In this document: in pieces, positions 1-40,400 of the stretch | Layout of the letters: each line of letters opens with the position of its first letter | How positions within the stretch are numbered: the stretch's first letter is position 1 | IMG/VR virus record: IMGVR_UViG_3300017992_000046 | Coordinates: 1-41,366 of that record | DNA: 41,366 bases | Origin: a virus | Strand: one strand, 5' to 3' | The notes under the pieces: model-generated | What the model saw: only the letters and a program-made list of their open reading frames with translations | What the model was told of the DNA's origin: nothing | Databases searched by the model: none | Position numbers and translations under genes: made by a program

Positions 1-352
1 CACCCCCCCAGAAGTCGGCCCACTCGTCCGAGGGGGTCTCGGTCTGCTCGACTTCCCCCTCTTCTAGGGGGGACAGGCCCTTGGCCACCCTATCAGCCAT
101 GTCCTGGACCCGCTGCCGGTGGGCTTCGACCTCCCTCTGTCGGGTGGTAACCGCTGTCGCTTTGGCCGCTCCCCCCTCATTCGAGGTAATGTTCCAGAGG
201 GGGGTGTGCTTCCCCTCCAACTCGGGGAACAGGGCCTCCCCAGTTTGGGGGTCTACTGCCTGACCGGCATCTAATTGAAAGTAGGCAAACGGGGCAATTT
301 CGGGATTTTGGCAAGCTAGGTCAAGTAGGGCGTTTTCGGCTGAGATTCTCAT
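1..352 (-). CDS. Hypothetical phage protein, C-terminus beyond the window
   Basis: The minus-strand frame is open from an ATG at 352 to the left edge, giving 117 codons without a stop. The start is supported by an AAGGAG Shine-Dalgarno 6-11 bases upstream. The product is hydrophilic with no membrane segment; it has a motif DPQTGE near residue 37, also found in the next minus-strand gene, and a charged, probably helical stretch around residues 65-95 (TTRQREVEAHRQRVQDMADR). I do not recognise a family. Both minus-strand genes share a leader of the form CACC...CCCAAAAG before the Shine-Dalgarno, suggesting related expression. The DNA is full of C4-6/G4-6 hairpins, unlike the + strand genes to the right. 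Confidence 0.65.
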   Translation of the reverse strand, partial: MRISAENALLDLACQNPEIAPFAYFQLDAGQAVDPQTGEALFPELEGKHTPLWNITSNEGGAAKATAVTTRQREVEAHRQRVQDMADRVAKGLSPLEEGEVEQTETPSDEWADFWGG

Positions 353-421
353 GGTCTACTCCTTTTGGGGGGTGGTGGGTAACGCCGGTCTCACCCCCTC
401 CGCAGAGGGGGCAGGACGGGC

Positions 422-468
422 GTCCCCCCTTGCGGGGGGACTACCCTACCGACCCCCTATTCGGGGGT
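422..468. other. Two adjacent GC hairpins at the end of a minus-strand gene
   Basis: GTCCCCCC-TTGC-GGGGGGAC at 422-441 and ACCCCC-TATTC-GGGGGT at 452-468 flank or overlap the stop codon (457-459) of the minus-strand gene at 457-1038. A third hairpin, 394-411, follows towards the next gene. None has a U-tract on the minus strand, so they are not standard intrinsic terminators. They might stabilise the 3' end of the upstream message or cause pausing; that is inference. Confidence 0.5.
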
Positions 469-1038
469 GTACTCGTAGGTCTCCCCCTCCAGGGTAACCT
501 TGACATAGTCCATTTTAGTCAGCGCCCAGTCCCAATAGGTGGCCGCTGGCTTCCCCGATAGGGGGATGCCGTCCGCTCGGCAGAAGACGATGCGGTCTAC
601 CTCTTCCGGGGGGACTTCCTCCCCCGTTTGGGTGTAGACGTAGCGGGTTGTCATCGGTACGCCAACCGCACCACCCGTTTGGGGGGTCGTTGGGCGTGCG
701 GTCAAGTAGTGGTTCCCCTTATGCTCCACAAGGGGGGTATTGGGGATGCGGACCCCCCATTTGCGCTCCCCCGTCATGGGGGGTAGGCCCATCTTCGCTC
801 GTTGTTTCTCAAAGTCTGCATTAACTTCCAGACCCCCCTCTTGGATGCGGGTGATGACCCCCTTGTCCCCCTTTCGGGGGGCGGGGTCGTCCGTTTTCCT
901 GACCACGATTCGGAGCAGACCCCTCTTTCGGGGGTCGCCCGCCTTATTGACGACCGTCTCCCCCGTTTGGGGGTCCATCCGATAGGGGGCTGCTTTGAGA
1001 ATTTCGACCAACTCCGCCATTTTCACTACCTTAGCCAT
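457..1038 (-). CDS. Conserved phage protein of unknown function
   Basis: A 193-residue protein starting at an ATG preceded on the minus strand by GGAGA at 6-8 bases. The central part (about residues 73-108) has the pattern VNADFEKQR...ERKWGVRIPNTPLVEHKGNHYL. I associate this from memory with a widespread uncharacterised phage protein whose members carry 'NYE..VNRQR...WG..I.GTPLVEHKG.YYL'; this has not been checked by a search. Three PQTG or TQTG segments (about residues 23, 119 and 137) are encoded by C-run/G-run hairpins and look like tolerated in-frame insertions. It reads leftwards, opposite to the structural cluster, and so probably belongs to an early or replication transcript. Confidence 0.7.
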   Translation of the reverse strand: MAKVVKMAELVEILKAAPYRMDPQTGETVVNKAGDPRKRGLLRIVVRKTDDPAPRKGDKGVITRIQEGGLEVNADFEKQRAKMGLPPMTGERKWGVRIPNTPLVEHKGNHYLTARPTTPQTGGAVGVPMTTRYVYTQTGEEVPPEEVDRIVFCRADGIPLSGKPAATYWDWALTKMDYVKVTLEGETYEYTPE

Positions 1039-1072
1039 TTTACCGTCTCCATCTTTTGGGTGGTGGTGTGTT

Positions 1073-1090
1073 GCTTGCGTCGTCGCAAGC
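1073..1090. other. Perfect 7-bp stem-loop in the leader of a minus-strand gene
   Basis: GCTTGCG-TCGT-CGCAAGC is a perfect palindrome with a four-base loop, 35 bases upstream of the start at 1038. Its composition differs from the C/G-run hairpins. It could be an operator or an RNA hairpin affecting translation; position is the only guide. Confidence 0.5.
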
Positions 1091-1416
1091 CTCTACCCTA
1101 CGGAAATTGCCCCAAAGGTGGGGTACTCGTAACGTGTTGGCACACAAGAGGTTACGTCGATTCTTTCCCTATTTTACCCAATGTGATTTAGGCCATACCC
1201 CCCGGCTCGAATCGTCGTAAGTCGTTACGTACCATAGGGTTAAAATTCTCGGAAAATAATCCATTTTCCAAGCGAGGGGGTGGGGGGGTCGCCGTTTTCG
1301 GCTTCTGTAGGGGGGCCACCTCGGAGGGGGTGGGTAGCAGAGCGGTTCCCCCCCTGGAGAGGGGGCTCGGCTCGATGCGGGTTGACCAGAATAGGCCACC
1401 ACAGGGGGGGTCGGCA

Positions 1417-1444
1417 CCCCCCGCACAATGCGGGGGGGCTTTTT
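1417..1444 (+). terminator. Rho-independent terminator on the + strand
   Basis: CCCCCCGCA (1417-1425) and TGCGGGGGG (1429-1437) form a perfect nine-pair stem closed by the loop CAA, followed after GC by TTTTT (1440-1444). The U-tract is only on the + strand, yet no + strand gene lies upstream in the window. A G7 run at 1404-1410 could pair with the same C6 arm and prevent terminator formation. Confidence 0.7.
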
Positions 1445-1508
1445 ATAACCCCCTTGGGAGGTATTTGATACCCCCCCAAAATCGCACGGGGTTTAGAAGA
1501 AGCAAGCC

Positions 1509-1548
1509 AAAAAAATCCTGAAACGTCCAGTTTTGAAAGGACCAGTTT
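1509..1548 (-). terminator. Terminator of the small minus-strand operon
   Basis: Read on the minus strand, AAAC-TG-GTCC pairs with GGAC-GTTT around a ten-base loop with a two-base bulge, and seven U follow after five bases (A run at 1509-1515 on the + strand). It overlaps the stop codon of the gene ending at 1547, so it should end the 1992-to-1547 transcript. Confidence 0.65.
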
Positions 1549-1786
1549 ATGTGGACAGAACGTCCGAGACCTCGTCCATTTCTTTTTCGACTTCTATGCA
1601 ATGGAGCGTAGCACGCACTTTCGCAACGATTCGCTGGAGCGCCGCCCTCATATCAGATTCACTTGCTTGTGGAGATAAGCCGTTCTCTGCAATAGCACGG
1701 CAGTCCGTCAGGCCCAGGTGGAGTGATGAAACTTCTATGTTCAACACCCCACCATTCGGGCTCCTCATCACTCTGGGCTGTTTCAT
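1547..1786 (-). CDS. Small hypothetical protein, second gene of a minus-strand operon
   Basis: A 79-residue protein whose ATG overlaps the stop codon of the preceding gene (ATGA arrangement), with GGTGG just upstream, so translation is probably coupled. An alternative start at 1768 would remove six residues. The C-terminal half (about residues 40-79) is predicted helical and amphipathic, with alternating acidic and hydrophobic residues. There is no recognised domain, no signal peptide and no membrane segment. A terminator overlaps its stop. Base composition is ordinary, without the G/C runs that begin just to the left. Function unknown; its place beside a promoter switch makes a regulatory role possible. 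Confidence 0.6.
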   Translation of the reverse strand: MKQPRVMRSPNGGVLNIEVSSLHLGLTDCRAIAENGLSPQASESDMRAALQRIVAKVRATLHCIEVEKEMDEVSDVLST

Positions 1787-1992
1787 CTCACCACCTCTTG
1801 CCGCACTAGTTTACTTACGCCACGACCGTGGGCTTTTTTCAGGCCGAGCTTTTGACGTTTCTTTCGGTAAGCATACGTTGAAATGACCCTTCCAACAATC
1901 TCACTCAATTGCATTGCTCCTTGCTTATCCGTCAGCCGCTCGACATTCTCTCGAATGAATTGCTCCTCAATTTGGCTCCAAACTTCATTCAT
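1783..1992 (-). CDS. Small basic hypothetical protein next to the promoter switch
   Basis: The start at 1992 is chosen because AAGGAG lies 6-8 bases upstream on the minus strand; a longer in-frame version from 2046 would begin inside the promoter. The 69-residue product has an acidic, helical N-terminal half (MNEVWSQIEEQFIRENVERL) and a strongly basic C-terminal half (YRKKRQKLGLKKAHGRG), a layout compatible with nucleic-acid binding. It is not a recognisable helix-turn-helix repressor. Two minus-strand promoters, at about 2025-2054 and 2144-2173, can transcribe it. It is a plausible candidate for the factor acting on the inverted repeat at 2031-2051, but only by position. Confidence 0.65.
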   Translation of the reverse strand: MNEVWSQIEEQFIRENVERLTDKQGAMQLSEIVGRVISTYAYRKKRQKLGLKKAHGRGVSKLVRQEVVR

Positions 1993-2002
1993 GGCATTCT
2001 CC

Positions 2003-2032
2003 TTGACAAAATGCTGTTTCTGTGTGTATAAT
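2003..2032 (+). promoter_or_regulatory. Consensus sigma70 promoter, + strand
   Basis: TTGACA (2003-2008) and TATAAT (2027-2032) are separated by 18 bases. Initiation near 2039 gives a leader of about 40 bases before the ATG at 2079. It should transcribe the 2079, 2257 and sigma-like genes and perhaps the overlapping packaging genes behind them. It needs no phage factor, so it can act immediately after infection unless repressed through the inverted repeat at its start site. Confidence 0.8.
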
Positions 2033-2054
2033 AAAGTGGTGGTCACTTTATCAA
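2025..2054 (-). promoter_or_regulatory. Divergent sigma70-like promoter, minus strand
   Basis: Read on the minus strand, TTGATA (2054-2049) is followed after 18 bases by TATACA (2030-2025). Its -10 box overlaps the -10 box of the + promoter, so the two promoters probably exclude each other. It would transcribe the 1992-to-1547 operon. It is less consensus-like than the minus-strand promoter at 2144-2173. Confidence 0.5.
2031..2051. promoter_or_regulatory. Candidate operator: perfect 8-bp inverted repeat
   Basis: ATAAAGTG and CACTTTAT are exact inverted arms around GTGGT. The element covers the start site of the + promoter and part of the -35 region of the divergent minus promoter. That placement is typical of a repressor or switch-protein site. 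The binding protein is not identified. Confidence 0.6.
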
Positions 2055-2078
2055 TTGTCCTGTTTTTGGGAGATAGTT

Positions 2079-2267
2079 ATGAGTTCATGCAGTTGTCGTC
2101 GCAGTAAAGCCTGTGGGTCCAAAGCTCCAGTTATCCCCTCTCTATTATACACGCAGGCAAGCCCTTGTGTCAACGAAGAAATCGAAAAAGACATGGATGT
2201 TCCTGACCCGGAACCATGTGACGGAGAGGCTGCTATTGCATCGGAGGTTATGAGCAATGAGGGTTAA
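2079..2267 (+). CDS. Small cysteine-containing hypothetical protein
   Basis: The start at 2079 is supported by GGGAGA six bases upstream and by the promoter at 2003-2032; upstream in-frame ATGs lie within the promoter. The 62-residue product opens with MSSCSCRRSKACGSK, a Cys-x-Cys...Cys cluster with basic residues, and has two further cysteines and an acidic C-terminus. The cysteines could bind a metal, but there are too few and they are too irregular to name a fold. It is the first gene of the rightward transcript and overlaps the next by 11 bases. A strong minus-strand promoter lies inside it (2144-2173), so it may be subject to antisense transcription. Confidence 0.6.
   Translation: MSSCSCRRSKACGSKAPVIPSLLYTQASPCVNEEIEKDMDVPDPEPCDGEAAIASEVMSNEG
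2144..2173 (-). promoter_or_regulatory. Consensus sigma70 promoter, antisense to the first rightward gene
   Basis: On the minus strand TTGACA (2173-2168) and TATAAT (2149-2144) are 18 bases apart, both exact. The bases next to the -10 (GTGTATAAT) match those of the + promoter at 2027-2032. Transcripts would run leftwards through the + promoter and operator into the 1992-to-1547 operon, giving it a second, stronger promoter and possibly interfering with rightward initiation. Confidence 0.75.
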
Positions 2268-3879: not shown

Positions 3880-4411
3880 TTTTCGCATGGACAAGACCAA
3901 GCCCATTGGTGACCGCAACAAAAGCACGATTATGGGTATCAATGTTGGTGGTAACAAGAAGCCTGTTCAGCCTAGCCTGACGCCTGCTCCTGTGCAACCA
4001 AAAGACGCTGGATTGCCTGACAATCCCAACCTACTGCGACCCTTTGAGATAGTTCAGCCAGTGGTACAAGAAGACATGGACCTATCCCCCGAGGAAGCGT
4101 TGGGTCAGGTGGTCACAGTGGTTGAGAAGGAGGAAGATTATGCAGAGGACGACAGCGCTGTATCAGTCAATGATGATAGCGACACAGAAGACGACGAAGG
4201 GGCTGATAGCGAAGTCGATGAGCCCGAGGCAGATGACAGTGACGCTGAGGGCGACAGTGCCTTCGATACTGAGGCGGGAGTCGATATTTCCGATGAGGAA
4301 GGCGAAGCTGAGGACGATGAAGATGCTGACGCTGACGAAGAAACTGAAGACGAACCCGTAGACGAGGATGATGACAATGCTGAAATCAGCGACGGGGAGA
4401 AGTCCGTATAA
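3872..4411 (+). CDS. Highly acidic protein of unknown function
   Basis: A 179-residue protein with AAGGAG upstream of its ATG, which overlaps the previous stop by eight bases. The first 75 residues are ordinary and proline-containing; from about residue 80 the chain is mostly Asp and Glu (for example EDDEDADADEETEDEPVDED) with Ser and Ala, and is probably disordered. No known domain is seen. Such tails can act as DNA mimics or as chaperone-like or scaffold segments. Its position between a probable small terminase and the large terminase suggests a packaging or head-assembly role, but this is only positional. Open frames opposite this segment are composition artefacts. Confidence 0.6.
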   Translation: MSDFRMDKTKPIGDRNKSTIMGINVGGNKKPVQPSLTPAPVQPKDAGLPDNPNLLRPFEIVQPVVQEDMDLSPEEALGQVVTVVEKEEDYAEDDSAVSVNDDSDTEDDEGADSEVDEPEADDSDAEGDSAFDTEAGVDISDEEGEAEDDEDADADEETEDEPVDEDDDNAEISDGEKSV

Positions 4412-5498
4412 GTCGGCCATCATAATTGGGGTGACCGGACAGGACGGGTCTTATCTCTCAGAATTTTTGCTTAGCGGCGGGTATCGTGTTGTTGGCGTCA
4501 AGAGACGTTCTAGCGTTGACAATACGACCAACCTGGAGGAAGCTAAGCACTACAATGACTTCCATCTCATAGAGGGTGACGTAACTGATTACTCATCCAT
4601 GGTGAATGTGTTGTCGCAGGCTTCTGGTATTTTTCATGGAGCCCCGCATGAAGTATACAACTTGGCTGCACAGAGCCATGTTGGAACTAGCTTCAAGCAG
4701 CCGTTGGCAACCTGGGATATGACCGCTAAGGGCGTGTTGAATATCCTGGAAGCTATCCGTCAAGGCGGCTACATTCCTCATACGAGGTTTTACCAAGCAT
4801 CCACTAGCGAGATGTATGGAGACAACTACAAGTTGGTTGAAGGTCATTCCCTATGTGAAGAACTGAGTCAGCCCCAAGTTCAGCTTGTGCAGGACGAGAC
4901 TGTGGCGTTTTCACCACGTAGTCCCTATGCGATTGCCAAGACCGCTGCCCATCAAGCAGTGGGTTTATATCGGGACGCATATGAACTACATGGCTCTTGT
5001 GGCATTTTATTCAACCACGAGAGCCCGCGTCGTGGAGAGAACTTTGTGACCAGGAAAATCTCTCGATATGTTGGGAGATTGGCGGTTGCCAAGGAATATG
5101 GTGACAAGAACTTTGGTCCGTTGAAGTTGGGTAATCTTGCTGCGCGTAGAGACTGGGGTCATGCCAAGGATTATGTAGCGGCGATGCACTTGATGCTTCA
5201 ACAAGATAAGCCTGGGGACTATATCGTTGCCACTGGTGAAGACCATAGCGTTAAGGACTTTTGCCAAGCTGCTTTTTACCACGCTGCGCTGAACTATGAG
5301 GACTATGTGGAGGTTGACCCGTCATGCATGCGCCCCGCCGAGGTTCCTCACTTACATGGGTGTGCCGATTTAGCACGCGAAAAACTAGGTTGGCGTCCCA
5401 CCAAGACGTTTGAGCAACTTGTTCGTGATATGGTAGAGGCCGACTACCTACTCGCTAGGCAGGAGAGAGAATATGAATCCTTACGTAGTTCTTCGTGA
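4371..5498 (+). CDS. gmd: GDP-mannose 4,6-dehydratase
   Basis: This short-chain dehydratase converts GDP-D-mannose to GDP-4-keto-6-deoxy-D-mannose, the precursor of GDP-fucose, rhamnose and perosamine sugars. The NAD(P) site is GVTGQDGSYLSEFLLSGG near residue 20. The family segments YNLAAQSHVG, FYQASTSEMYG and SPYAIAKTAAHQ carry the Ser/Thr-Ser-Glu and Tyr-x3-Lys catalytic residues; RRGENFV and LGNLAARRDWGHAKDYV complete the signature. Length (about 375) is normal. Start choice is uncertain among ATGs at 4368, 4371 and 4377, all after GAGG. The gene overlaps both neighbours and has no promoter of its own, so it is made with the terminases. It may modify host surface sugar or supply a glycan for the virion or DNA; no glycosyltransferase is visible nearby. 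Confidence 0.9.
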   Translation: MTMLKSATGRSPYKSAIIIGVTGQDGSYLSEFLLSGGYRVVGVKRRSSVDNTTNLEEAKHYNDFHLIEGDVTDYSSMVNVLSQASGIFHGAPHEVYNLAAQSHVGTSFKQPLATWDMTAKGVLNILEAIRQGGYIPHTRFYQASTSEMYGDNYKLVEGHSLCEELSQPQVQLVQDETVAFSPRSPYAIAKTAAHQAVGLYRDAYELHGSCGILFNHESPRRGENFVTRKISRYVGRLAVAKEYGDKNFGPLKLGNLAARRDWGHAKDYVAAMHLMLQQDKPGDYIVATGEDHSVKDFCQAAFYHAALNYEDYVEVDPSCMRPAEVPHLHGCADLAREKLGWRPTKTFEQLVRDMVEADYLLARQEREYESLRSSS

Positions 5499-5958
5499 TA
5501 CACGAGAGAAGGAGGGTCAGGGTTGGTCTTTCCGCAAGTCAAGTCGTTGCGGTGGTACTGTTACCCGCAAACTTGACACTGGTGACTATACCCTAGAGGG
5601 CCTGGAGAACTACCTTACCATTGAACGTAAGGGTAGCGTCTCTGAATGGGCTAAGAACGTGACAGAGGCTCGTTTTGAGCGCGAGCTTGAGCGTTTGGAC
5701 GCAATCCAGCATCCGTGGATTCTGTTGGAATTCAATATGACCGACCTGATGAACTATCCCGTTGGGTCTGGTATTCCAAGAGCCAAGTGGCGCTACCTTA
5801 AGTTTCGTGGACCATTCATCTTGAAGAAGATGACTGAGATGATGATGCAGCATCGAGTGCGTATTGTCCTTTGTGGAAGCAACGGCAAAGAGGTAGCCTC
5901 CAACATTTTCAAGAGGACAGTTGAGCATGTCGCAGCTAATTCTACCGTCACCGAATAG
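5473..5958 (+). CDS. ERCC4-type (XPF/MUS81-like) nuclease
   Basis: A 161-residue protein with AGGAGAGA before its ATG, inside the end of the dehydratase gene. The N-terminal half has the ERCC4 nuclease order: hydrophobic strand VVLRDTREK (Asp9, Arg11, Glu12), LDTGDYTLEG (Asp38) and LTIERKGSVSEW (Glu51-Arg52-Lys53). The usual final Asp of GDXnERKX3D is replaced here by Ser57/Glu58. There is no helicase domain or clear helix-hairpin-helix, so this is a stand-alone nuclease. ERCC4 enzymes cut branched or flap DNA. The gene overlaps the large terminase by 32 bases, which suggests trimming branches or joints on concatemeric DNA before packaging, as HNH proteins do in other phages; this role is inferred. 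Confidence 0.75.
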   Translation: MNPYVVLRDTREKEGQGWSFRKSSRCGGTVTRKLDTGDYTLEGLENYLTIERKGSVSEWAKNVTEARFERELERLDAIQHPWILLEFNMTDLMNYPVGSGIPRAKWRYLKFRGPFILKKMTEMMMQHRVRIVLCGSNGKEVASNIFKRTVEHVAANSTVTE

Positions 5959-8035
5959 TCGTCTACACGTTCCTCAACGCAAGCTGTCGGTCACACAGAT
6001 TGACGCTATGATTGAGAACGAACATATGGGTTTGCCTCGTGACTTTGATGAAAGTCAAATTCACAACATACTCTTAGACTCTAGTTATCGTTCTAAGTTT
6101 GACAATCCGATGCTGGAGATGTTGGACTTTATGTCCAAGCCCGAGAACTTCTACTTCACATGCAAGTGGCTACTGAACATCCACTTGATGCCGTTCCAGG
6201 TTACTATCTTACAGGAACTCTGGAATCGAAAGTTCCCGATGTTGATTGCTACCCGTGGTGGTGGAAAAACATGGATTCTCTCGCTCTATGCCATGTTGAA
6301 AGCCATCTTTCACCAGGGTTGTAAGGTTGTTGTGGTTGGTGCGGCCTTCCGTCAGAGTAAGCTGCTGTTTGAATACATGGAACAGTTCTGGCGGGGGGCT
6401 CCCATCCTCCGCAACATGGTTGGTGATGGTAAGCATCAGGGGCCAAAGCGCGACGTAGACCGCTGCAACTTCTACATTGGTGACAGTGAAATCATTGCTA
6501 TTCCGCTGGGTGACGGCACCAAGATTCGTGGTTTGCGTGCCAACTACACGATTGCCGATGAGTTCGCTTCTATTCCCTTGGAAATCTTTGAAGTCGTTAT
6601 CAAGGGATTCGCGTCTGTTAGCGCAAGCCCAGAACGGCGTTCCAAGGACATGGCTCGTATTAAGGTCTTGAAGTCTCTTGGTATGTTCGCTGAGGCTGAT
6701 GATGTAGACGTAGGCTTTGGCAACCAAACCGTTGTGTCTGGCACGGCCTATTACTCATTCAATCACTTCTACGATTACTGGAAGCGATACAAGGACATCA
6801 TTGAATCCAGGGGTGACACGCGCCGCCTAGAAGAAATCTTCAAAGGCGAGGTTCCCGAAGGGTTTGACTGGAAGCAGTTTGGTGTCTTTCGTGTGCCATG
6901 GCAGAAGTTGCCGTATGGTTTCATGGATGAGACGCAGATTCACCAAGCCAAGGCTACTGTCCATAACGCCATCTACCAGATGGAGTACGGAGCATGCTTC
7001 GCGCGCGATAGTGATGGGTTCTTCAAGCGTTCACTCATTGAGTCGTGTGTGTGCAATGAGCCAATCCAGTTGGCGAGTGGTCCTGTCCAGTTCTCTGCAA
7101 TGATTCGGGGCAACCCCAATTGTGAGTATATCTATGGGATTGACCCCGCGTCCGAGCAGGACAACTTCGCAATCGTTGTTCTGGAGCAACACGCCGACCA
7201 CCGTCGCATTGTGTACTCATGGTCTATCACACGCCAGGAATTACGTGAGCGAATCAAAAAGGGTGGGCAGACTTCTCACAAGTCTTTCTACACCTACTGC
7301 GCTCGCAAGATTCGTGAGCTAATGCGCGTCTTCCCAACTCGTCACATTGCTATTGATAGCCAGGGTGGTGGTATTGCTATCATGGAAGCGCTTCACGACC
7401 CAGACGAGATTCGGTCTGACAAGGGGGAGCGTCCGCTGTGGCCCTGGATTAAGCAGGGAGACAATGATGTGTTCTGGTGGGAGAAGCCGGATAAACCAAC
7501 AGACGGCGAGCCGGGGTTACATATCCTGCATATGGTGCAGTTTGCGCAAGCTGATTTCACTCGCGATGCTAACCACTTTATGCGAAAAGACTTTGAGAGT
7601 AAAATCACCTTGTTCCCCCAATTCGACCCTGCGACTATTAGTGAAGCTATCTCCTTAGACAAAATCCACAAGCGAGACTATGATACGCTAGAGGATGCAG
7701 TTGTCGAGATTGAAGAACTCAAGGATGAGCTTGCAACAATCATACACGACCAAACCACAGGTGGTCGAGACAGGTGGGATACTCCAGAAGTCAAGTTGCC
7801 CGGCAACAAGAAGGGCAGAATGCGCAAGGACCGCTACTCAGCCCTGTTGATGGCCAACATGATTGGTCACGTAATGGATAATGAGTTGTTGGGTGTCCAA
7901 CATGAGTTCGTTGGTGGTTTTGTCGGCCAAAAGAAGGGTGTGCAAGCTGGAACTGGAAAAATGTACGTGGGTCCAGACCATATCGTGTCTAAGATGAATG
8001 CTGGGGCTTATGGCAAAGGCGTCCGTCGCTTTTGA
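5927..8035 (+). CDS. terL: Terminase large subunit
   Basis: The DNA-packaging motor ATPase and nuclease, 702 residues from the ATG at 5927 (a TTG at 5921 is possible but is only four bases from AGAGGA). Walker A is ATRGGGKT (108-115), an arginine-containing variant common in terminases; Walker B with catalytic Glu is IADE (209-212). The RNase H-like nuclease half begins at YGIDPASEQDN (Asp406), continues with HIAIDSQGGG (Asp477) and ends with KDRYSALLMANM, which holds the third acidic position. The ATPase pulls DNA into the prohead and the nuclease cuts the concatemer. It overlaps the ERCC4 nuclease gene and is followed by the portal gene behind a motif promoter. Confidence 0.93.
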   Translation: MSQLILPSPNSRLHVPQRKLSVTQIDAMIENEHMGLPRDFDESQIHNILLDSSYRSKFDNPMLEMLDFMSKPENFYFTCKWLLNIHLMPFQVTILQELWNRKFPMLIATRGGGKTWILSLYAMLKAIFHQGCKVVVVGAAFRQSKLLFEYMEQFWRGAPILRNMVGDGKHQGPKRDVDRCNFYIGDSEIIAIPLGDGTKIRGLRANYTIADEFASIPLEIFEVVIKGFASVSASPERRSKDMARIKVLKSLGMFAEADDVDVGFGNQTVVSGTAYYSFNHFYDYWKRYKDIIESRGDTRRLEEIFKGEVPEGFDWKQFGVFRVPWQKLPYGFMDETQIHQAKATVHNAIYQMEYGACFARDSDGFFKRSLIESCVCNEPIQLASGPVQFSAMIRGNPNCEYIYGIDPASEQDNFAIVVLEQHADHRRIVYSWSITRQELRERIKKGGQTSHKSFYTYCARKIRELMRVFPTRHIAIDSQGGGIAIMEALHDPDEIRSDKGERPLWPWIKQGDNDVFWWEKPDKPTDGEPGLHILHMVQFAQADFTRDANHFMRKDFESKITLFPQFDPATISEAISLDKIHKRDYDTLEDAVVEIEELKDELATIIHDQTTGGRDRWDTPEVKLPGNKKGRMRKDRYSALLMANMIGHVMDNELLGVQHEFVGGFVGQKKGVQAGTGKMYVGPDHIVSKMNAGAYGKGVRRF

Positions 8036-22760: not shown

Positions 22761-25700
22761 ATGGCTCAATCCTTCAATCTTGTGGCTCGCCTGCATCTAC
22801 AGGGGCCGCAAAATATCAATCAGGTAGTCAACCGTATCCAATCTCGGTTGAACAGTATCACGGCGAACGTATCGTTGAATGTTCCTGCTGGTGCTGGGTC
22901 TACGTTGGCGACATTCAATAACACGTTGTCTCAGACCAACACCTTATTGACTCAAGTAACATCCAATGCTCAAGCGGCGGCGGCGGCGCTACGTACTGTA
23001 GGTGCTAGCGGTCGTGCGGCTGGCGCTGGCGTTGCGAGTGGTGCTGCTGGAGCCAATGCTACAGCTAGCAACATGAAGAAGGTTTCTGCTGCTACGCAGG
23101 TGGCCACTACTGAGATGGCTCAGTTTGGCAAGATTTCTGCGTTGGCTGTTCGTCGTTTCTTGGCGTTCAGTATCCCTGCTGGTATCATTGTTGGATTGGT
23201 GATGAATATCAAAAAGGGTGTTCGTGCCGCAGTTGATTTTGAGCGGGAGATGGTCCGTGTTCAACAGGTTACTGGTAGAACTACTGAGGGCTTGAGGGCG
23301 TTGACCGGCACCATTGGTGAGTTGTCTACTACCTTTGGTTCTGCATCAGCCGAGTTGGCTGAGGTTACTCGTACCTTGGCACAGGCTGGTCTAACCGCCC
23401 AGCAAACCCGAGTGGCGCTGTCGGCCATTGCCAAGTCTGACCTTGCTCCTACATTTGATAGCATGAAGCAGACGACAGAAGGTGCTATCGCTGCCATGCG
23501 TCAGTTTGGTTTAGCGGCGGAAGACCTTGAGGGCAAGCTAGGTTCTATGAACGCTGTTGCAGGTAGCTTCGCTGTTGAAAGTGCTGACATCATCAGCGCT
23601 ATCCGACGTACTGGTGGTGCGTTCCAGGCTGCTGGTGGCAACCTTGAAGAATTGATTGCGTTGTTCACAAGTGTTCGTTCTACTACTCGTGAAAGCGCTG
23701 ACTCGATTGCTACTGGTTTCCGTACAATCTTCACTCGTTTGCAGCGTCCGCGAACCATTCAGTTCTTGCGTGGTTTTGGCATTGAACTACAAAACCTGGA
23801 AGGCAAGTTCGTTGGTCCATACAAGGCTGTCGAAGAATTGTCGCGGGCCATGAAGAACCTTGACCCTCGTGATGTACGATTCTCTCGTATCACGGAAGAG
23901 TTGGGTGGCTTCCGTCAGGTCTCCAAGGTAATCCCGTTGATTCAACAGTTCGCTACTTCGCAGAAGGCATTGACGGTAGCCTTGAGTGGTACTGAGTCGT
24001 TGACAGAAGACGCTGCTACTGCACAACAGGCTTTGGCGGTTCAGATTAGTAAGGTTGGCGAGGAGTACACCAAGCTGTTCCGTGAAATTGTTGGAAGCGA
24101 CCTTTTCAAGGATTTGGCTGATAGTGCCCTGACGTTTGCCAAGAACCTTGCTGATGTTGTTCGTCTGCTTGAGCCAATTATCCCGTTGATTACTACGTTG
24201 GCTGGCTTTAAGGCTGTATCTGTAACAAGGCAATTCGCGACCGGATTCATCCCTGGCCTGCTTAGCGCGGGTGGCACTGGCGGTGGTCCTACAACGGGTC
24301 CACAGAATGCCGTGGCGGCACAGAATCAAAATACGACTGCTACCAACAGAAACACGGCTTCTCAGAACCAGCAAACACAGGCCAGCACTCAGACAATGAC
24401 AAGTCTGATTGCCGCGCTGAACTCAACCACCAACGCCGTTAACCAGAACACAATGGCGGTGAATGGTTTGCGCGTTGTCATTTCTGCTTTGCAATCCTAC
24501 ATGCAGGCTCGTGGAGCCGCTGCTGCCGCTGGTGGTCTAGCTGGTGGCCGTGGATTCCAGCGTGGCGGTCCTGTTCCTGGCTCTGGTAGGGGAGACAAGG
24601 TTCCCGCGATGTTGGAGCCCGGTGAGTTCGTCATGCGTCGAACTGCTGTCGAAGCCATGGGTATGGACCAGATGCACGCCATCAACACGCAGAAGTTTGC
24701 CAAGGGTGGTCCGGTTAAGCGTGTTAGGATTGGTTTGGCTGCATTGCGTGGTGAGCCCGCGAACACATTTCCCGACAGGGTTTATGCTCCGCAGGAATGG
24801 GGAGGTCGTTCTGAACTAGCGCTTTCGTTGACTGCTCAACCACTGGACCCCAAGATTGGTGCGAACTTTGAGCGTCGTACATTCCATGGTCTGGTCAATG
24901 CCTTGCGTAATGCCAGCCAGGATACGGTTAATAGGCTGGGCACTCAATTGCCGCCAGCGCCTCGCAACTTCTGGGTCCACAACTTGCGTAAGGCCAATCT
25001 GTTTCCGAGCAAAGAGAACCGAACTGGTACACTAGGAAAGATGTTTGAGGCTGTGGTCACTCGACTGGGTAACACCGCGCAGTTTCGTCCTAGCGATGCT
25101 GCTCCGCACAGTCGCGAAAGTGGAAAGTATGCGCGTAGACTCAGTCGTCAATCCGTTGGTAAGGTGTCTGAGCCATTTGATTTCATCGGCGGTGTTCGTA
25201 ATGCTCAGTTAGAAGCATGGCCAATGCTAGCCGGTATTCCTTTGGTAGACGCCAAGCGTACCAACAGCGCGAAGAATCGTAGGGACGTTTACGCTAAGGG
25301 CTTGACGTACCTGGGCAAGTCTGCTGCTGCATTTAGACAGAATGTAAAGAATCGTGCTGACAATAGAAAGTTGGCTGCTGGCGTTATTGCTTCGGGAACG
25401 CCGTTGCAAAATGCTATTAAGCAGTTACATGCTGCTGATAAAAAAGCCGTGGCGGTTTGGGCTAGTGCCATTACCGGCAAGCGGGATGCATCGAAGATTC
25501 AAGCAGCGGTTACTGCACTGTTTGATAAAAAGGGCTTGCCAGCTATTCGTAATCTGCCCACAGAGCTTCGTGCTACATTGAGTGGTAAGTACGCTAACCG
25601 CAAGGCCATCCAGGAGGAATTGGGTGGTGTTGAGTACATGACCAGCAAGACGGCCTTCATGGAACGCTTGAAGCAGTTGAAGTATCTCAAGGATGGTGGT

Positions 25701-28700
25701 GTTGGTAGCAAGCGTGACCGAGTACCGGCTATGCTTGAGCCCGGTGAGTTTGTTATCAATCGTCACGCTGCGGCGAAGTTTGGTTATGACAACCTAGAGG
25801 CGGTCAACAAAGTTCAGAGGTTTGCGCAGGGCGGTATTGTTCGACAATTCAACGCCGGGGGTCGCGCTCCGAATGTTGGTGCTGGTGCCGGAACCGGACT
25901 GTTCTCTGTTGTGATTTTGTCTAGTATGGCCAAGAGCTTTACTGAGGCTGGCAGCGCAGCCGACAAGATGGTGGATAGCATGACACGACTGGTTGTTGTG
26001 ATGACCAGTTTACAGTTGGCTGGTGGTATGTTGCAGGGCTTTGTTCGCACGTTGAATGCCGTCAATTTGCAGGGAGGTTTGTTGGCTGGTGCGCGCGGTG
26101 GTTATTTGCGCGGTATGTTTGGTAGTCAGACTAGAGGTGTCGGTCTTGCCACCCCCATTGCTCCACGTTACTTAAGTCCAGGTGGAGCCCCGTCATTTGG
26201 TCCTGCGAGTGCTACCGGTCCACCTACCGTGGGTAATCGTGGCGGCTTTAAGGCGAATGCCAATGCCTTGTCTCAAAGCCTATTTGGTTTGAATGCTGGC
26301 ATGCTTGCTTTAGGAGCAGCCGTTGCCGTTGTTGCGGCTGGGTTGTACTTGTGGGGCAGATACCTCAAGAAGACTTCTGAGGAAATGGCCAAGACTGCCC
26401 GTACTCAACAGGCGATGAATGCAGCCATTGAGGAAAGGCGAGCGGCTTCCACTGCGACATCGGCGGGCGTGGGTTTGGGTGGTGGCGCTGCGGCAGGATT
26501 TGTGATTGGTTCTGTGATTCCAGGCATTGGTAATGTCGTTGGTACGGCTGTTGGTGCTGCTATTGGTGGTGTTACCGGCTTGCTATATGGTGCATTTGGC
26601 GACATGACCCAGGCTATTCGAGAGCTTCGCAAGATTAACCGTGAGGAACGCGCTGCCGAAGCTACCACAACCCTAGAAGGGGCGTTCAAAGAACTAACGT
26701 CTGGTGACGTTGCTGTTCGCGGTTCGCGGTCTGCGTTGGACGTAGCTAAAGGGCTACGCGAATTCCGTTCACTAGAACAAGAGGCTCGCCTGAACGAAGA
26801 CGACGAAGGTGCGCAAGCCTACAATCGTTCGTTGCGCGGATTCGCTACGCAAACTGAGGATGTAAGGGCTAAACTTGTTGAGGTTGCTGTAGACCTAGAT
26901 GATTTCAAGAACAACACCGCTGCTGGTGCCGAAGTCATTTTGGCCTTGGCTCAAGTTCAGAAGAAGAGTACGTTTGAAATTGAGCGGGCAATCCAGAATG
27001 AGATTGAGGCACGAGACAAGAAGGCAAAGCGAGATGCTGATGAAGCAGCCGCTCGTGAGCAGACGAATACACTAACCACTACCCTGTCGCTGTTTAATGC
27101 GGCGCTCAAGGACACTGTAGCCAATCTACAGCGCGTGGCTGGTCAACTTGATGTAGAGACCGCTATTTCTCAGGGCAAGCCTACTGTTGGTAGATTTACC
27201 GGTCGTCCTGGGTTTGGTGACTTCTCGCGCGTGGCCTCTGGTGGCGTTGCCAACTTCCCGCAGTTTAGTCGTGCGCTAGAGCAGGCCATAGGTGGCGTTG
27301 GTGACAATCGAGTATTCCAGAATGTAAACGACATTTCCCGCGCTTTGAACGAAATGCCTCAAGTTTTGACTTCCATCGGTGCAGCATCGGCGTTGGACCC
27401 CGATGACGCCCAGACTCAATTTGAGAAAGCGTTTGATTCGCGATTTGCTGGCGTTATCAGCGACGAAATTTCTGCATCATTGAGGAATACTATTGGTGGT
27501 GGCATCAACAGGTTTATTACTAAGTCCGGTGAGGGTGACGCGGGCGCTGGTAAATTCCTAGAGTTGGCTCGTAGCAACCCGCAAGAACTTCTGCGTCAGG
27601 TTGGCGGTCAGGAGTATGAGAGTATTCTCAAGCAAATTGACCTCATTTCCAAGGGACAGTTGGAGGCGGCTAAGCTACTTGAGGACGCTATACTGCAACA
27701 AGTCGAGTCTGAAATGCGAATTGTGAAGGCTCGTGACGCAATGGCCAAGAGCCAGTTGGAGTCTCAGCAGGCGCTATTCCAGGCTACCCGACGATTGCCT
27801 ACAGACATATTCCCACTGGCCGAAATCCGAGCTTCACGGGGAGCGCGACTGTCCAGCCTTGTGCAGGGCACCGGTGTCGCTGATGCAGACCGCTTTGACG
27901 TAGATGCTTTGGCTTCTCGTTTGGGTATTGTTCTTGACCGCATTCGTACTGAAACCGCAGAGAGCAATCAACGCTCGCTGTTGGCTGACGATGAAGGTGC
28001 GTCCTTTGCCAAGGCGAAAGACGAGTTGGGCGCACTGAATGTCGAAGCCCAAAAACTACGCATGGCCATGGAGTTGCTGGGTGAGACAACCGATGAGGCT
28101 GCGCAGATTCAGAAGACTCTGAACCTACTGGAAGAACAAAAGAAGACTCGATTCGGCTTGGCTGACCGCTATACGTTCGGTTCGCGTGAAGACCGTCAGA
28201 AGATTTTGCAGGGTATCTTGGATACTGTGAGGGTTACCACGGGCGGTGTTCCCATTGACAGACTCTCCGCTGAACGACGCGGTGAAGTCTCTCGCCTGCT
28301 AAAAGAGTTCTCCAATGTCAACACGTTGATGGCTGGCGTTGATGCATTCGGTCGTGGTCTCACGGGGCTGGAAGGCAATGTGGGGATTGTTGAGAGGCGC
28401 ATTGGTGGTATCAACGTACCCGGTCCATGGCAGCAGTTCTTTGGCACCGGCCCCAACCTTAGCATTGACCAGTTCAATCCTCTGCAACTCAACGAGGAGC
28501 AGGAGAGTCAAGTTGACCAACTACGTGCGTTGTATGAGCGCCGCGCAGAGGTTGAAACTGCGTTCATTGGCAACATGGAAACTAGCCACGATAGACTAAT
28601 CAACACGATGCAGACTGAGTTCCAGCGCTTTACTGCGCGGTTAGTCGCGGAGTTGGAGTTGATTAACCGTGAGCGAGTCGAGCGTGAGCGTAGCGTTAAG

Positions 28701-31700
28701 CAGGATGAGGCCAATGTGCTTTCTGGTCAACAGCGGGCATTGGAAGACGCTGGTGCGATTATTAGTCCGGTATTTCCTGACCTGGAGCCACAAGGTATCT
28801 TCCGTGTTGTTGAAGCTCTGAGTGATGTGGAGAATGTTGCTACTTTTCAACGCCGTGCCGCAGGGCACGCGGCGATGCAGGGTCTAATGTTGCCTAGCAC
28901 AGCCCCGGCTGTTGAAACACGGGGAGACCAAACGGTTGACTTGGGGATAACCGGCAAGGAGTTCCACGATGTTCTCATTAGCACCTTCAAACGACTGGGT
29001 AGGGATGTAGATGCTACCGCTGTGGAAGAAGAACTCAAGAAGTCGTTTAAGGATTTTGGCGTTGACCCGTTTGAACAACTGACGCAACAAGGTGTGATTG
29101 ACAAGACCCAGCTAAACAAGCTGTACGCTGATATGTCGCAGTCTATTGCCGACAAGATAAATTTAGAGGGGCCGAGAACCATCAGAAGTGGTCCTCGCTC
29201 TCCCCACCCTAGTGTTCGGCGCGCCATCGAAGAAAGACTTGCGACCAATCGCGATAAGTTTATTAGAACAGAACTGATTCCTCAGATAACAGAGGTTCCT
29301 CGACAAAACCGCGTCGATGCCTTAAGAAGTATTTCTGCCGATGCTGGGCTAGAATCCGAAGACGATAATGCTGTACGAGACCTGTTGACTGCTAGTGGCG
29401 ATGCTATCTCCAAGATAAGTGTTGCGTTGGGAGAACTCAAGGTTACGGACGTTGCGAGTCTGGGCGACAATCTTCGCAAGGTCAATGCCCGGCTGGCAAC
29501 CCTGGATGAGATTTTAGCAGGCTTGTCTACTCGTGAAGAAATTCAGACCCGCTTGGGTCTTGGAGAACTTACGTCCGCTGGTAGACACGCTGGTAGTTCA
29601 GAGCCCAAGAGTCTTGGCGGCATCATGTTCAAGCGCCAGGGCACCGATACCGTTCCTGCTATGCTCACCCCCGGTGAGTTTGTTGTCAATGCTGCCGCTA
29701 CGCAGAAACACATGGGATTGCTACACGCAATCAACCGGGGTAGTAGCGTTGTGACGCAAGGTGGCGTTTCTTACGCGCGCGATGGCGGCTACATTGATGG
29801 AGGGGTTTATCGTCGCGGTGACTTGACTGTTGTTTACGACGCTGAGAAAGATGAGTTCTTGACTCCCAATCGTGATTTCGCTCTCGGTGGCGACCTGAGT
29901 CAACTAGAGTTTACTGGCCAGCGCGTTACTGCTCGTGTGAGTGATAACGTGCAAGGGCCTCTTGGTGGTATGTTGGACAGCGTGGTTGCTGAGCCTTACC
30001 AGCGTCCGCAGCTAGACCCAGCGATTAAGCCAACGGGCCAACCCGTTGCTGTGGACCACCCACGCCCTGAGCTTCCTCGTGAGCGTGGTCGCATTCCAAT
30101 AATGCAGCCACAGGGTGACATTCCTACTGACCCACTATTTGGATTGAACCGACCTAGTCGGGAGTTGCCTGTTGCTAAGCCGGGCCGTAGGATTCCCACC
30201 AGGGCGGCTCGTGGCGTTATGCCCGACCACGATGAGTTGATTACGGGTCAAAAGGAGCGTTTCGATGTTCATGCATCGTTGTTTAACGACTCGATGTCGG
30301 CACCACTAGATTATGACCCGTTTACTGGACGCACAACACCAGCGAAACATATAGCGGCACAGCCGCCGCTTAACCCAGCGGGGTTCGACAAGGTGTTGCC
30401 GGAGGTTGCTACCAAGGTCGCTGGTGATATGATTGGTGACCTTGTTGATAATGCTCAAGCGATTGCGGCTGCTGCGCAGCCACGCATTAGCGCTGGTGTG
30501 GACTTGTCTCAAGAGTTTGCTCAAGGGTTTGTTCCGCCGCCTGTCCCGCAGCCATCCGAACGAGAGCGGCTGTTGGCCAAGCTGAGCCCACAGGCTCGTG
30601 CTGCCTACGACAAGCGTCAGAAATACCAAGAGGGCCAAGCCAAGCGTCGTGAGCGTTACTTAAAGGCGCAAGCCGATAAGCGTGCGGCATATCGTGAGCG
30701 CCACCCTGGTTCTGTTGCTGGTTTGACGGGCGAAGCGCGTAGCTCTCACATGAAGATGCTACGTGAACAGCGTGATGCCGAACGTCAATTGCGTTATTTG
30801 GACCGCAAAGAACGAGAGGCTAGTCGTCCACAGGTTAGCACACCAGATATTTACGAGCGCTTGGCCAAGGCCCAAGGGCGACTGCGAGAAAATGACACCG
30901 CTGCCAATCGACGCATCGTTGAACTGTTGGATGCTCAAGTAACTAGGGCTCTGGCAAGCAAGGGCGGTGCTGCTGAGAGTAAGGCCGCTGGCATATACGT
31001 CAATGGCGAACTGGTTACGGGTGAGAATCGAGCCAACTTGATTGAGCAGGGAAGGAAGGCTGCTGGGGTTCAACTGCCCACAGCACAACCCTCTCCTGCT
31101 TATCCCGGCGCTATCAAGACCATTACTGATGCTGATTTCAGAGATGACCAGCGTGTAGTTGGTACGAGAACTCGACCCACGCCTAAAACTGGTGCGTTCC
31201 GAACACGCATTCCAGGCCGTGGAACGTCTGCATATGACCTGGGTCCAAGTCGTGGTAGTGTGGATATATCTCAGCCCACGCCAAATGAAATCATCAAGCA
31301 GGCTTCGGCTCGACTGACTGAGTTGAATCAGCAAAAAGAGGATTACCTCCAGCTACGTAAGCTATTGCGTTACTCCATGCGAGTGGGTAATATCCCTGGT
31401 GTGGATATGACCCCGGCTGACTTGATTACGTTGGCGCGTGAATATGGTCAGATTGAATCTGTTGCAGACTTGCACTTCAAGGGTGAGTTTAACCCAACTG
31501 GTGACCCTGCGCAGCGTGCCCAGATTCGTGAGTGGGCTCGACAGTTGGAACCTGGGGTGGGCTGGGTATTTTCTGGAGTCAAACCTCAGCCTAGTCGCCG
31601 TGTAGTTTCTCCCCGTAGCCTACCTGAGCGTAGGGTGACGCCTGATACGCTGGGAGACATTAAGTCAATTGAGAAGCGAGTGGATACAACTCTGCGCACT

Positions 31701-37470: not shown

Positions 37471-40400
37471 ATGTCAGTTTGTTGTGGTAGTAATGGAACA
37501 CCATTTGTTCAAACCAGATTCTTAGGTGCCAGCGTTCAGCGTTTTTCTGCGCAGGTAGATTGGAATGGTACTGGTGGCGGTCTGCAAGTAGAGCTTGTTG
37601 AAGACTTATGCAATGGTGACTTCTTCAATCCTCCGGGGGTCGGCTGTCCAGTGTTGTTCAGCATGGGTGGCTTTACGCATGGAGGTTTGCTACAGAACTG
37701 GAAGCAGAACGACTCCGCAACGGGTGCTAAGAGCTATACGGTGAACATAATCAGCCCTCGTGAAATCATTGAGGGTTGTCAGGTCATTTTGAGTAGCTAC
37801 AACGGTCCTACGTATGGTGTACCGAATCTTGCCAACGTCTATGGTTGGTTGGAAGCAACACTAGGGAATCCTTGTGTCGAAGCTGGATATACTGGTGAAG
37901 TTATCCCTGGTTTGGGCTCCAATCTTACCTATCCTCCCGCCCCCGGCTTTGGTGGTGCATTCAATAACGAGGTAGGTATCCCTTGGCAGTTGATTCTAAA
38001 CGCATTGGGGGCAATCCTCAACGGTGGTGGCGGCGCGTATGGTTCCCCCATGACGTTCAGGGGTTCCACATACCTATTTGACCTATCTGAGCTTCCCTTG
38101 CTTAATGGTGAAGTACGCATAAGTGGTGAAAACAAGTCCCTTGAGGATTTGATTGCTCAAGTATGTAGTATGGGCGGCGTGGATTATTTCTACGACCTTA
38201 TTACTGTTGGTGCGCCGTGTGGTGGTGTGGCAAGTAGTATCATTAAGGTTCGTACCAGCAATGGTTCGTGGCAGGCTTTCGATGAGTCCGCTGAGTTGGT
38301 TGATGCTGCCTGTGGTTCTCACATTGATGCTCGTCTAAGCCTAGGCACCATTGGTTCTACTATTGCGGCCTCAAGCTGTGTTCATCGTCAGGGTCGCGGT
38401 CTGGAATTGAAACTCGATACTACCAATGCTTTCTTGACTGGTGAATTCCGTCAGGAAATTTGGCAGGTTGCGTATGATGAACCAGAAGACCAAGATGAGT
38501 GTATGGGATATGGCACCATCTGGCCATACTGGGGCAAGAACCCAGATGGGACCGTCATTATTGGTGAGGAATGTTCTGATGGTACGTTGCCAGCAGAAAA
38601 AGACGACCTTGATTACGGCCACCACTTTGTTGCTAAGACTGACCACCTGGGCATTGGCGTTGATGAGTGGGACATTACCCTATTTGAATTGAATGCCGCG
38701 CTGGTTAGCCAGGGTCACTGGGAAGCATGGCTTTACCAGTTTGAGCGGGAGAAGTATGACCAAGTGATGGGTCAGTCTGAGATTGCAGTACGGTGGTTAG
38801 ATGAACTTGGTCAGATTACTGATGACCTTGCTATGGGTTTTGCATTGGCGACAGCCACGAAGGCTGATGAGCATGCTGTTAAAAATGTGGCTACTGTCAA
38901 TTGGGACCGCGCTAGCGCAATTAACCTTGGGGCTATTGATGACGAGCAGTTGTTAAAGAACGGCAAGCTGTATGACTTTGTGCGCAAGTTCGCCCAGGAG
39001 TTTTATGGTCGTCAGTTCATGGTTCGTTTGCCATGGCTCTGCACACGATACAACTCTGACACGCCGTGGACGCTAGAGACCAATTGGGAAACGTCTGACA
39101 GTGGTTGGACCGAGTGGCCTGTTCTGGGGCTACCTAATCCGCACTGGATGCTCGACCAGTTTCGTGCTGACGATGGCAAGATTGAATGCTTCGTGAAGTA
39201 CACCAGTGAGCGCCCCATGATTCTGGATAACTTGAGCAAGAAGGATTACTTTGCTCTCAATCCGTACAATGTGTTTGTGCGCGCTTCGGCTGATGGTGGC
39301 ATTGTCTGGGTTGGTCCTGATGACGCTCGTGCTGTTATCAAGACCAGCGGTCCTATTCAGCAGTACAATCCGTATGACGTGCGTCCAGAATGGTTGCTGG
39401 GATTTGCCTTCACTGGTCATCTGCATAACAAAGACAAGAACGCATATATGCAAGCGGTTAAGAGCATATCTAACGACAAGTTTGCGTTAGGTATGATGGA
39501 CCCATATCTACAGCCAATTGCTGCGTGTGTTCCACTACAGAGCAAGCGTTTGGTGTATGGCCCCTGGTTTGCTAAAGAGGCTGACTTTCCAGGCTATGAC
39601 TTTGGAATTGGTGGCGCTTTGTTTGGTGGCAGCGACAAGGGGAAGACTGAATACCAGCGCGAGGCTGGTTTTGCTCCATGGCACTTTGGTAGCTGGGCAC
39701 TCATGGACTGGGTGGCATACAGCACGGCCAGCGCCATGCTTGGTGATAAGTACGTAGTTGAAATGGGTGACATTACGGTTCCAGGCGCTCCTGTTGGTTC
39801 ATTGGGAAGCCTAATTGCTGCTGGTGGACCCATTGTATCTCATATTGACGTACAAATTGGTCGTGGCAACGGTGCGGTGTTGACCACATATAGGATGCGC
39901 ACACACACACCAGACCAAGGCAAGTTAGCTTTGACTAGACTGCAACAGATTCGTCATAGCGCGAAGGTTGCAATTAAGGCTGAGCGTATGTTCCGCAAGT
40001 ACACGTTAGGCCGCTTGCGTAATGAGTGGGATAGGCCGATTGAACAGCAGTTGCTACAGTGGAAAACTTCACACGGTTTGTCTGGGAGTTCTTCTCACGA
40101 CATGATGGGGGGTCAGGCGTTTCGTGACCCGTCTGGTCCTGCACTGAATACTGGTCCGCTTCAAGAGGTGCAGCATTTTCACACCCGTCAAGATGAGACC
40201 ATCACGGTTCAAGCTCCAGCGAATTATGAGGAATCGTCCCAAGACGACGAGCCTTGGGCACAGAGCGTGGCCACGCAGAGCGAGAGCAAGAAAGACCTTT
40301 ATACGCTCCGCGCGGACAGTCCCCACTACTATCGACGACGAGCGTACATGGAAGCCCAGGGCATGTTCCGTGGTTTTTCCACACTTCCACACGCCCACAA

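What the first reader, a model, noticed from the sequence alone, without database searches (positions are those of the whole stretch)
1..1480. Lattice of C-run/G-run hairpins confined to the leftmost 1.5 kb
At least fifteen inverted repeats with C4-6 and G4-6 arms and 3-18 base loops occur in about 1.4 kb, within two genes and their gaps, then stop abruptly near 1480. Both strands carry the runs, so it is not simple GC skew. It could be a family of tiny palindromic elements spreading in this module, a recombination or packaging signal, RNA-level control, or sites bound by a phage protein. Known analogies are HIP1 palindromes of cyanobacteria and Rickettsia palindromic elements, though both differ in sequence.
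Basis: partly seen in the sequence, partly recalled or inferred. Interest (0 to 1): 0.75.

Follow-up and report, generated by a model that had tools for sequence, protein, structure and literature searches.

The report
C/G-run stem-loops in phage early arm
The left end of this phage contig is the edge of a small-gene region, shared by several related large phages, that is unusually full of short C-run/G-run stem-loops; in some relatives these sit at transcript ends beside early promoters, and in one group they mark where gene cassettes come and go, but why the runs also fill the genes is unexplained.

Summary
Positions 1-1491 hold 15 C4+/loop/G4+ hairpins, and 43 runs of C5+ or G5+ (19 C, 24 G). 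The rest of the window has almost none. Codon usage does not explain it: the two genes carry 25 runs against 13.0 in own-codon shuffles (z 5.4), and 20.2 when codon-junction dinucleotides are also kept. Elsewhere in the window, runs fall below expectation.

It is not confined to 1.5 kb. The contig ends there, and in relatives the run-rich stretch is 14-22 kb, on the far side of a regulatory region from the packaging genes. Several relatives share C-first hairpins in that arm and almost none elsewhere. In one relative, 60-bp tandem hairpins lie at gene-cluster ends, 43-123 nt before the next consensus promoter. In three close relatives a 0.7-kb gene cassette is present or absent exactly between element copies.

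That matches the known PeSL (promoter early stem-loop) cassettes of T4-like phages. The window's own hairpins lack adjacent promoters and are not recognised by a model of the relatives' element. Insertion of tiny palindromes into the genes is not supported. Best reading: a new variant of phage early-region stem-loops plus an unexplained preference for C5-7/G5-7 tracts.

The parts
1..1491 (.). Run-rich stretch, edge of the leftward small-gene arm; truncated by the contig end
   Evidence: 43 runs of C5+/G5+ and 15 C-first hairpins; syntenic run-rich arm of about 14 kb in G001
1..352 (-). P0002, 3' end cut by the contig end; unknown function; orthologue in G001 (52% identical) and a weak homologue in G004
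   Evidence: no Pfam or PHROG match
457..1038 (-). P0001, 193 aa, unknown small phage protein; weak homologues in other large phages
   Evidence: no Pfam or PHROG match
394..439 (-). Two tandem hairpins between P0001 and P0002, sense CCCCCCgcaaGGGGGG - acgcccgtcctg - CCCCCtctgcggaGGGGG, flanked by ACGCC/GGCGT that appears as ACGCT/AGCGT in G001
   Evidence: folding z -5.1 for 353-460
453..467 (-). Hairpin spanning the stop codon of P0001 (CCCCCgaaTAGGGGG)
553..973 (-). Five hairpins inside P0001: 553-565, 768-783, 867-881, 920-934, 960-973
55..251 (-). Three hairpins inside P0002: 55-72, 212-227, 238-251
1110..1491 (-). Four hairpins in the non-coding stretch upstream of P0001: 1110-1123, 1348-1365, 1417-1438, 1471-1491
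1417..1443 (+). The one hairpin followed by a clear T-run: intrinsic-terminator-like, reading rightward, opposite to the flanking genes
1547..2046 (-). Two small genes next to the arm, without C5+/G5+ runs; conserved order in G001 (38346-38833)
5921..8035 (+). Terminase large subunit, used to find relatives; no hairpins around it

Best explanation
The window's left end is the first 1.5 kb of the leftward, small-gene (probably early) arm of a large tailed phage. In this group of phages that arm carries C-run/G-run stem-loops as RNA-level boundary elements. In relatives they lie after the last stop codon of a gene cluster and shortly before the next strong promoter, where they would end or stabilise the upstream transcript and insulate the next one (inferred). 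Their repeated sequence also lets homologous recombination add or drop gene cassettes (indicated by junctions in three relatives), as PeSL cassettes do in T4-like phages. In the window's own lineage (window, G001, less clearly G004) the same arm additionally prefers uninterrupted C5-7 and G5-7 tracts inside genes (shown statistically). Many coding hairpins follow from that preference; its cause is not known.
For: Synteny of genes and hairpins with G001, so the junction is not an assembly chimera. Run-rich arm in G001 38.8-52 kb and G004 2-23 kb. C-first hairpins in the region more than 4 kb upstream of the terminase in nearly half of 28 loci tested (window 14, L053 13, L100 11, L107 5, L080 4), nearly none nearer or downstream; the G-first control is mostly 0-1 except in the run-densest loci. 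G010: elements lie in gaps between gene clusters; 10 of 12 hairpins end 43-123 nt before a TTGAC/TATAAT-type promoter, against a median of 370 nt for random positions; 25 such promoters on the sense strand, 1 antisense. L107 and L167 have one element where L100 has element, gene cassette, element, with matching outer flanks; a ~490-bp unit of gene, promoter and element in L100 is missing in L107. Covariance model R1 finds copies outside its training set (G011:37488, G012:26504). Runs in well-supported genes: window 25 vs 13.0, G001 44 vs 26.8, G004 29 vs 20.9 in own-codon shuffles, with the opposite sign in the rest of each genome.
Against: Model R1 does not recognise the window's or G001's hairpins above noise (window best 24.5 bits, E 0.05, in coding). 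No TTGAC-type promoter follows the window's hairpins. Most hairpins lack the T-run of intrinsic terminators. Stems show no covariation because they are nearly always C and G; only the flanking ACGCY/RGCGT pair changes on both sides, in two sequences. More stable folding than own-codon shuffles in P0001 (z -3.7) also occurs in a control gene outside the arm (z -3.3), so it is not specific to the arm. With junction dinucleotides preserved, the excess vanishes in G004 (29 vs 29.0). No expression data and no known host.
Confidence: 0.5

Rival explanations
1. Composition by-product: the arm is a GC-rich, codon-biased segment (CCC for Pro, GGG for Gly), perhaps adapted to the host's tRNAs before the phage's own tRNAs act, and hairpins arise passively.
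For: CCC is 79% of Pro and GGG 56% of Gly codons in the two genes against 26% and 9% elsewhere in the window; G001 and G004 carry large tRNA sets, so early and late genes might face different tRNA pools; in G004 the excess disappears once junction dinucleotides are kept.
Against: Runs of 5+ exceed own-codon shuffles in the window and G001 even with junction dinucleotides kept (p <= 0.002 each); in the window's genes runs of exactly 4 are not enriched while 5+ are; intergenic parts of the arm are also run-rich; C-first orientation is preferred in the window.
Confidence: 0.22
2. C5-7/G5-7 tracts are themselves a signal, read by a phage or host protein on RNA or DNA across coding and non-coding parts of the arm.
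For: Sharp lower threshold at 5 and upper limit at 7 in the window; no matching A/T excess in the arm's genes; arms stay almost pure C and pure G across diverged phages while loops and linkers vary.
Against: No candidate reader found; loop lengths vary from 3 to 12; most coding tracts are not at the same positions in G001.
Confidence: 0.15
3. A family of tiny palindromes inserted in-frame into genes, as in Rickettsia palindromic elements.
For: P0001 has insertions relative to three homologues that contain three hairpins (PYRMDPQTGETVVNKAGDPRKRG and TPQTGGAVGVPM).
Against: Runs are not enriched in unaligned codons (p 0.58) and most lie at aligned positions changed by substitution; the DPxTG unit of P0002 is a conserved protein motif in G001 and G004.
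Confidence: 0.07
4. Homopolymer slippage or another mutational bias confined to the arm.
For: Excess is in both coding and non-coding DNA and on both strands.
Against: No tail beyond 7 and a deficit at length 4 in the window, no A/T-run excess in genes, preferred C-then-G spacing.
Confidence: 0.06

Closest known systems
PeSLs (promoter early stem-loops) of T4-like phages (Arbiol et al. 2010, Comeau et al. 2014, as discussed in PMC4503421)
   Same: Stem-loop plus early-type promoter between small accessory genes, repeated in one genome region, with cassette gain or loss at the repeats (seen here in relatives).
   Different: Tandem C5-7/G5-7 stems with a 12-20 nt linker; the window's own hairpins lack an adjacent promoter and extend into genes; no close T4 relationship shown. 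The primary papers were not readable here.
PeSL-like motifs of haloarchaeal virus HGTV-1 (PMC3950731)
   Same: Inverted repeat plus promoter before many genes on one side of a large, tRNA-rich (36 tRNAs) virus genome.
   Different: Archaeal virus; TATA-box-like promoters; sequence not compared.
Morons of lambdoid phages (described in PMC1524935)
   Same: Gene with its own promoter and terminator gained as a unit.
   Different: Here the terminal element is a repeated homologous sequence that could itself drive recombination.
Coding palindromes in Nematomorpha mitochondria (PMC6649704)
   Same: Inverted repeats kept inside protein-coding genes.
   Different: Those are perfect repeats up to 284 bp; here short C/G-run arms.
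HIP1 of cyanobacteria (PMC4390886) and Rickettsia palindromic elements (from memory)
   Same: Many short palindromes, partly in genes.
   Different: HIP1 is a fixed octamer GCGATCGC; RPEs are inserted elements, which was tested here and not met.

Membership tests
PeSL cassette (T4-like phages) | Stem-loop next to an early promoter | tested here: not met
   No TTGAC/TATAAT promoter after the window's hairpins; met in relative G010
PeSL cassette (T4-like phages) | Recombination at the motif shuffles small genes | tested here: inconclusive
   Indicated in relatives L100/L107/L167; no close enough relative of the window itself
PeSL cassette (T4-like phages) | Carried by a T4-like myovirus | tested here: inconclusive
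   Terminase only distantly like named phages, best-covered Microcystis phage MaeS and Bacillus phages at 24-26%
60-bp tandem-hairpin element of G010/L100/G008 | Match to covariance model R1 | tested here: not met
   Window best 24.5 bits, E 0.05, in coding; G001 none
Intrinsic terminator | G+C hairpin followed by a T-run | tested here: not met
   Clear T-run only at 1417-1443 on the plus strand; the other hairpins lack one
Rickettsia-type palindromic element | Insertion inside genes relative to homologues | tested here: not met
   Runs not enriched in insertions, p 0.58
Known RNA family (Rfam 15) | Match above gathering score | tested here: not met
   None in the window; only tRNAs in seven loci of relatives
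HIP1 | Over-represented GCGATCGC | not tested
   Arms here are C and G runs; octamer not counted

The most novel reading that the evidence does not exclude
C5-7 and G5-7 tracts are a region-wide code that marks one expression module of a large-phage clade across genes and gaps, read at RNA or DNA level by an unidentified factor, with the intergenic stem-loops as its strongest form.
Probability: 0.13. Interest if true: 0.8.

Novelty: new variant of a known kind. Interest (0 to 1): 0.48.

Why it matters
It extends the PeSL idea, that phages shuffle early genes at stem-loop boundary elements, to a group of uncultivated large phages with a distinct C/G-run tandem hairpin. It also shows a synonymous-site preference confined to one arm of the genome and opposite in sign elsewhere, which makes module-specific selection on codon context testable.

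Tried and rejected
Chance or base composition. Codon usage alone. Assembly chimera: rejected by synteny with G001. Known RNA families and tRNAs: none in the window. In-frame palindromic insertions. Membership of the window hairpins in the 60-bp family by covariance model. Hairpins over stop codons as a general rule: a few cases only. Selection for mRNA folding in genes of the arm: not specific, a control gene shows it too. Cyanobacterial plasmid as yardstick for run excess: z 1.7 only. Host assignment: no terminase relative in genome contigs; the genome hit with the P0002 orthologue was spurious by inspection; psbA family absent in 12 relatives. DNA similarity to phages and plasmids: none. Pattern scans for single motifs mostly returned unrelated GC-rich contigs.

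Full report
Observation. The first 1.5 kb of the window carries 43 runs of at least five C or G, on both strands, and 15 hairpins with C4+ then G4+ arms; the rest of the window has no hairpin of the tested form. The run lengths are peaked at 5-6 and stop at 7, with fewer runs of 4 than of 5, unlike the geometric decline elsewhere. C-then-G pairs are close together, G-then-C pairs are not. The stretch comprises two minus-strand genes without family matches (P0001 457-1038; P0002 1-352, cut by the contig end), the gap between them, and about 440 bp of non-coding sequence, followed by two small genes at 1547-2046.

More than codon usage. Shuffling each gene's own synonymous codons gives 13.0 runs of 5+ against 25 observed; keeping the dinucleotides across codon junctions as well gives 20.2 (p <= 0.002). 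With the codon usage of the rest of the window only 1.7 (P0001) and 0.7 (P0002) would be expected against 18 and 7. The same arm in two relatives behaves alike (G001 44 against 26.8; G004 29 against 20.9), though in G004 the effect disappears under the stricter control. In the remainder of all three genomes runs are below expectation (z about -2.4 to -3.0). A and T runs show no such excess in these genes. The cause of this preference is not established. Gene calls in G001 and G004 are my own heuristic ones.

Not confined to 1.5 kb. The window is a linear IMG/VR fragment. In G001 (125 kb, terminase 81% identical) the genes next to the terminase, the two small genes, then the orthologues of P0001 and P0002 follow in the same order (G001 has one extra small gene before P0001's orthologue), and the run-rich stretch continues from 38.8 to 52 kb; in G004 it covers about 2-23 kb. 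The sharp edge at 1480 is therefore the inner border of a larger arm, and the junction is not chimeric.

Between P0001 and P0002 both phages have two adjacent hairpins with a similar linker (acgcccgtcctg / acgctcgtcctg) and a flanking pair ACGCC/GGCGT against ACGCT/AGCGT. This is one change on both sides in two sequences: suggestive, not proof of an RNA structure. The stretch folds better than its dinucleotide shuffles (z -5.1 window, -4.8 G001), but the lowest-energy structures of the two differ.

Clade-wide feature. Among 28 loci around related terminases, C-first hairpins occur in the region more than 4 kb upstream in nearly half, and almost nowhere else. In G010, L100, L107, L167 and G008 they form a recognisable 60-bp tandem element, and a covariance model built from 14 copies finds further copies in the same genomes. 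In G010 the copies sit in gaps between clusters of small minus-strand genes; 10 of 12 hairpins end 43-123 nt before a near-consensus sigma-70-type promoter on the same strand, against a median of 370 nt for random positions. Stems show no covariation because they are nearly always C and G.

Gain and loss. L107 and L167 carry a single element whose one flank matches the flank of element b of L100 and whose other flank matches that of element c; between b and c L100 has an extra gene cassette of about 0.7 kb. A second unit in L100, gene plus promoter plus element, about 490 bp, is missing in L107. This is what recombination between element copies would give. It rests on three related contigs.

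Window membership. The window's hairpins do not score with that model (best 24.5 bits, E 0.05, inside P0001), and no promoter of that type follows them. So the architecture is shared but membership in the 60-bp family is not shown. Inside the genes, runs are not concentrated in insertions relative to G001, and only 8 of 21 aligned runs are matched by a run of at least 4 in G001 (counted), so the units turn over by substitution rather than insertion.

Interpretation. The position and behaviour of the elements in relatives resemble PeSLs of T4-like phages, reported to mediate shuffling of small genes (PMC4503421 citing Arbiol 2010 and Comeau 2014; the primary papers were not held), and the PeSL-like motifs of the tRNA-rich virus HGTV-1 (PMC3950731). 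G001 and G004 are also tRNA-rich. Shown here: the excess, its confinement to one arm, the positions relative to genes and promoters, and the cassette junctions. Inferred: that the arm is expressed early, that the hairpins end or protect transcripts, and that recombination uses them. Unexplained: why the tracts fill the coding sequence in the window and G001.

Noticed in passing
window 2003-2173: Two perfect TTGACA-18-TATAAT promoter matches face each other (plus 2003-2032, minus 2173-2144), with a perfect inverted repeat ATAAAGTG-GTGGT-CACTTTAT at about 2031-2051 that could be an operator for the small genes nearby (sequence).
   Followed up: no
window 1417-1443: The only hairpin with a clear T-run is a terminator-like site reading rightward, against the direction of the flanking genes; it may stop antisense transcription into the small genes at 1547-2046.
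   Followed up: no
L142, L143, L144 (G001) and L139, L149-L151 (G004): Both relatives carry large tRNA sets (about 31 and 40 by ARAGORN) and a predicted tmRNA each, the one in G001 with a tag starting GNNIV.
   Followed up: partly
window 4368-5498; G001 34929-36086: GDP-mannose 4,6-dehydratase-like gene next to the terminase in the window (Pfam) and a similar protein at the same place in G001 (sequence).
   Followed up: no
window 22761-33674: Single open frame of 3637 aa, not identified.
   Followed up: no
L135 10458-11153 (G001 43458-44153): Protein starting MYLQITTRCNMSCAHCCFSC in the run-rich arm, radical-SAM-like by its cysteine motif (sequence only).
   Followed up: no
LR756508.1 447857-448150: A distant P0001 homologue in a 484-kb uncultured phage genome.
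   Followed up: no
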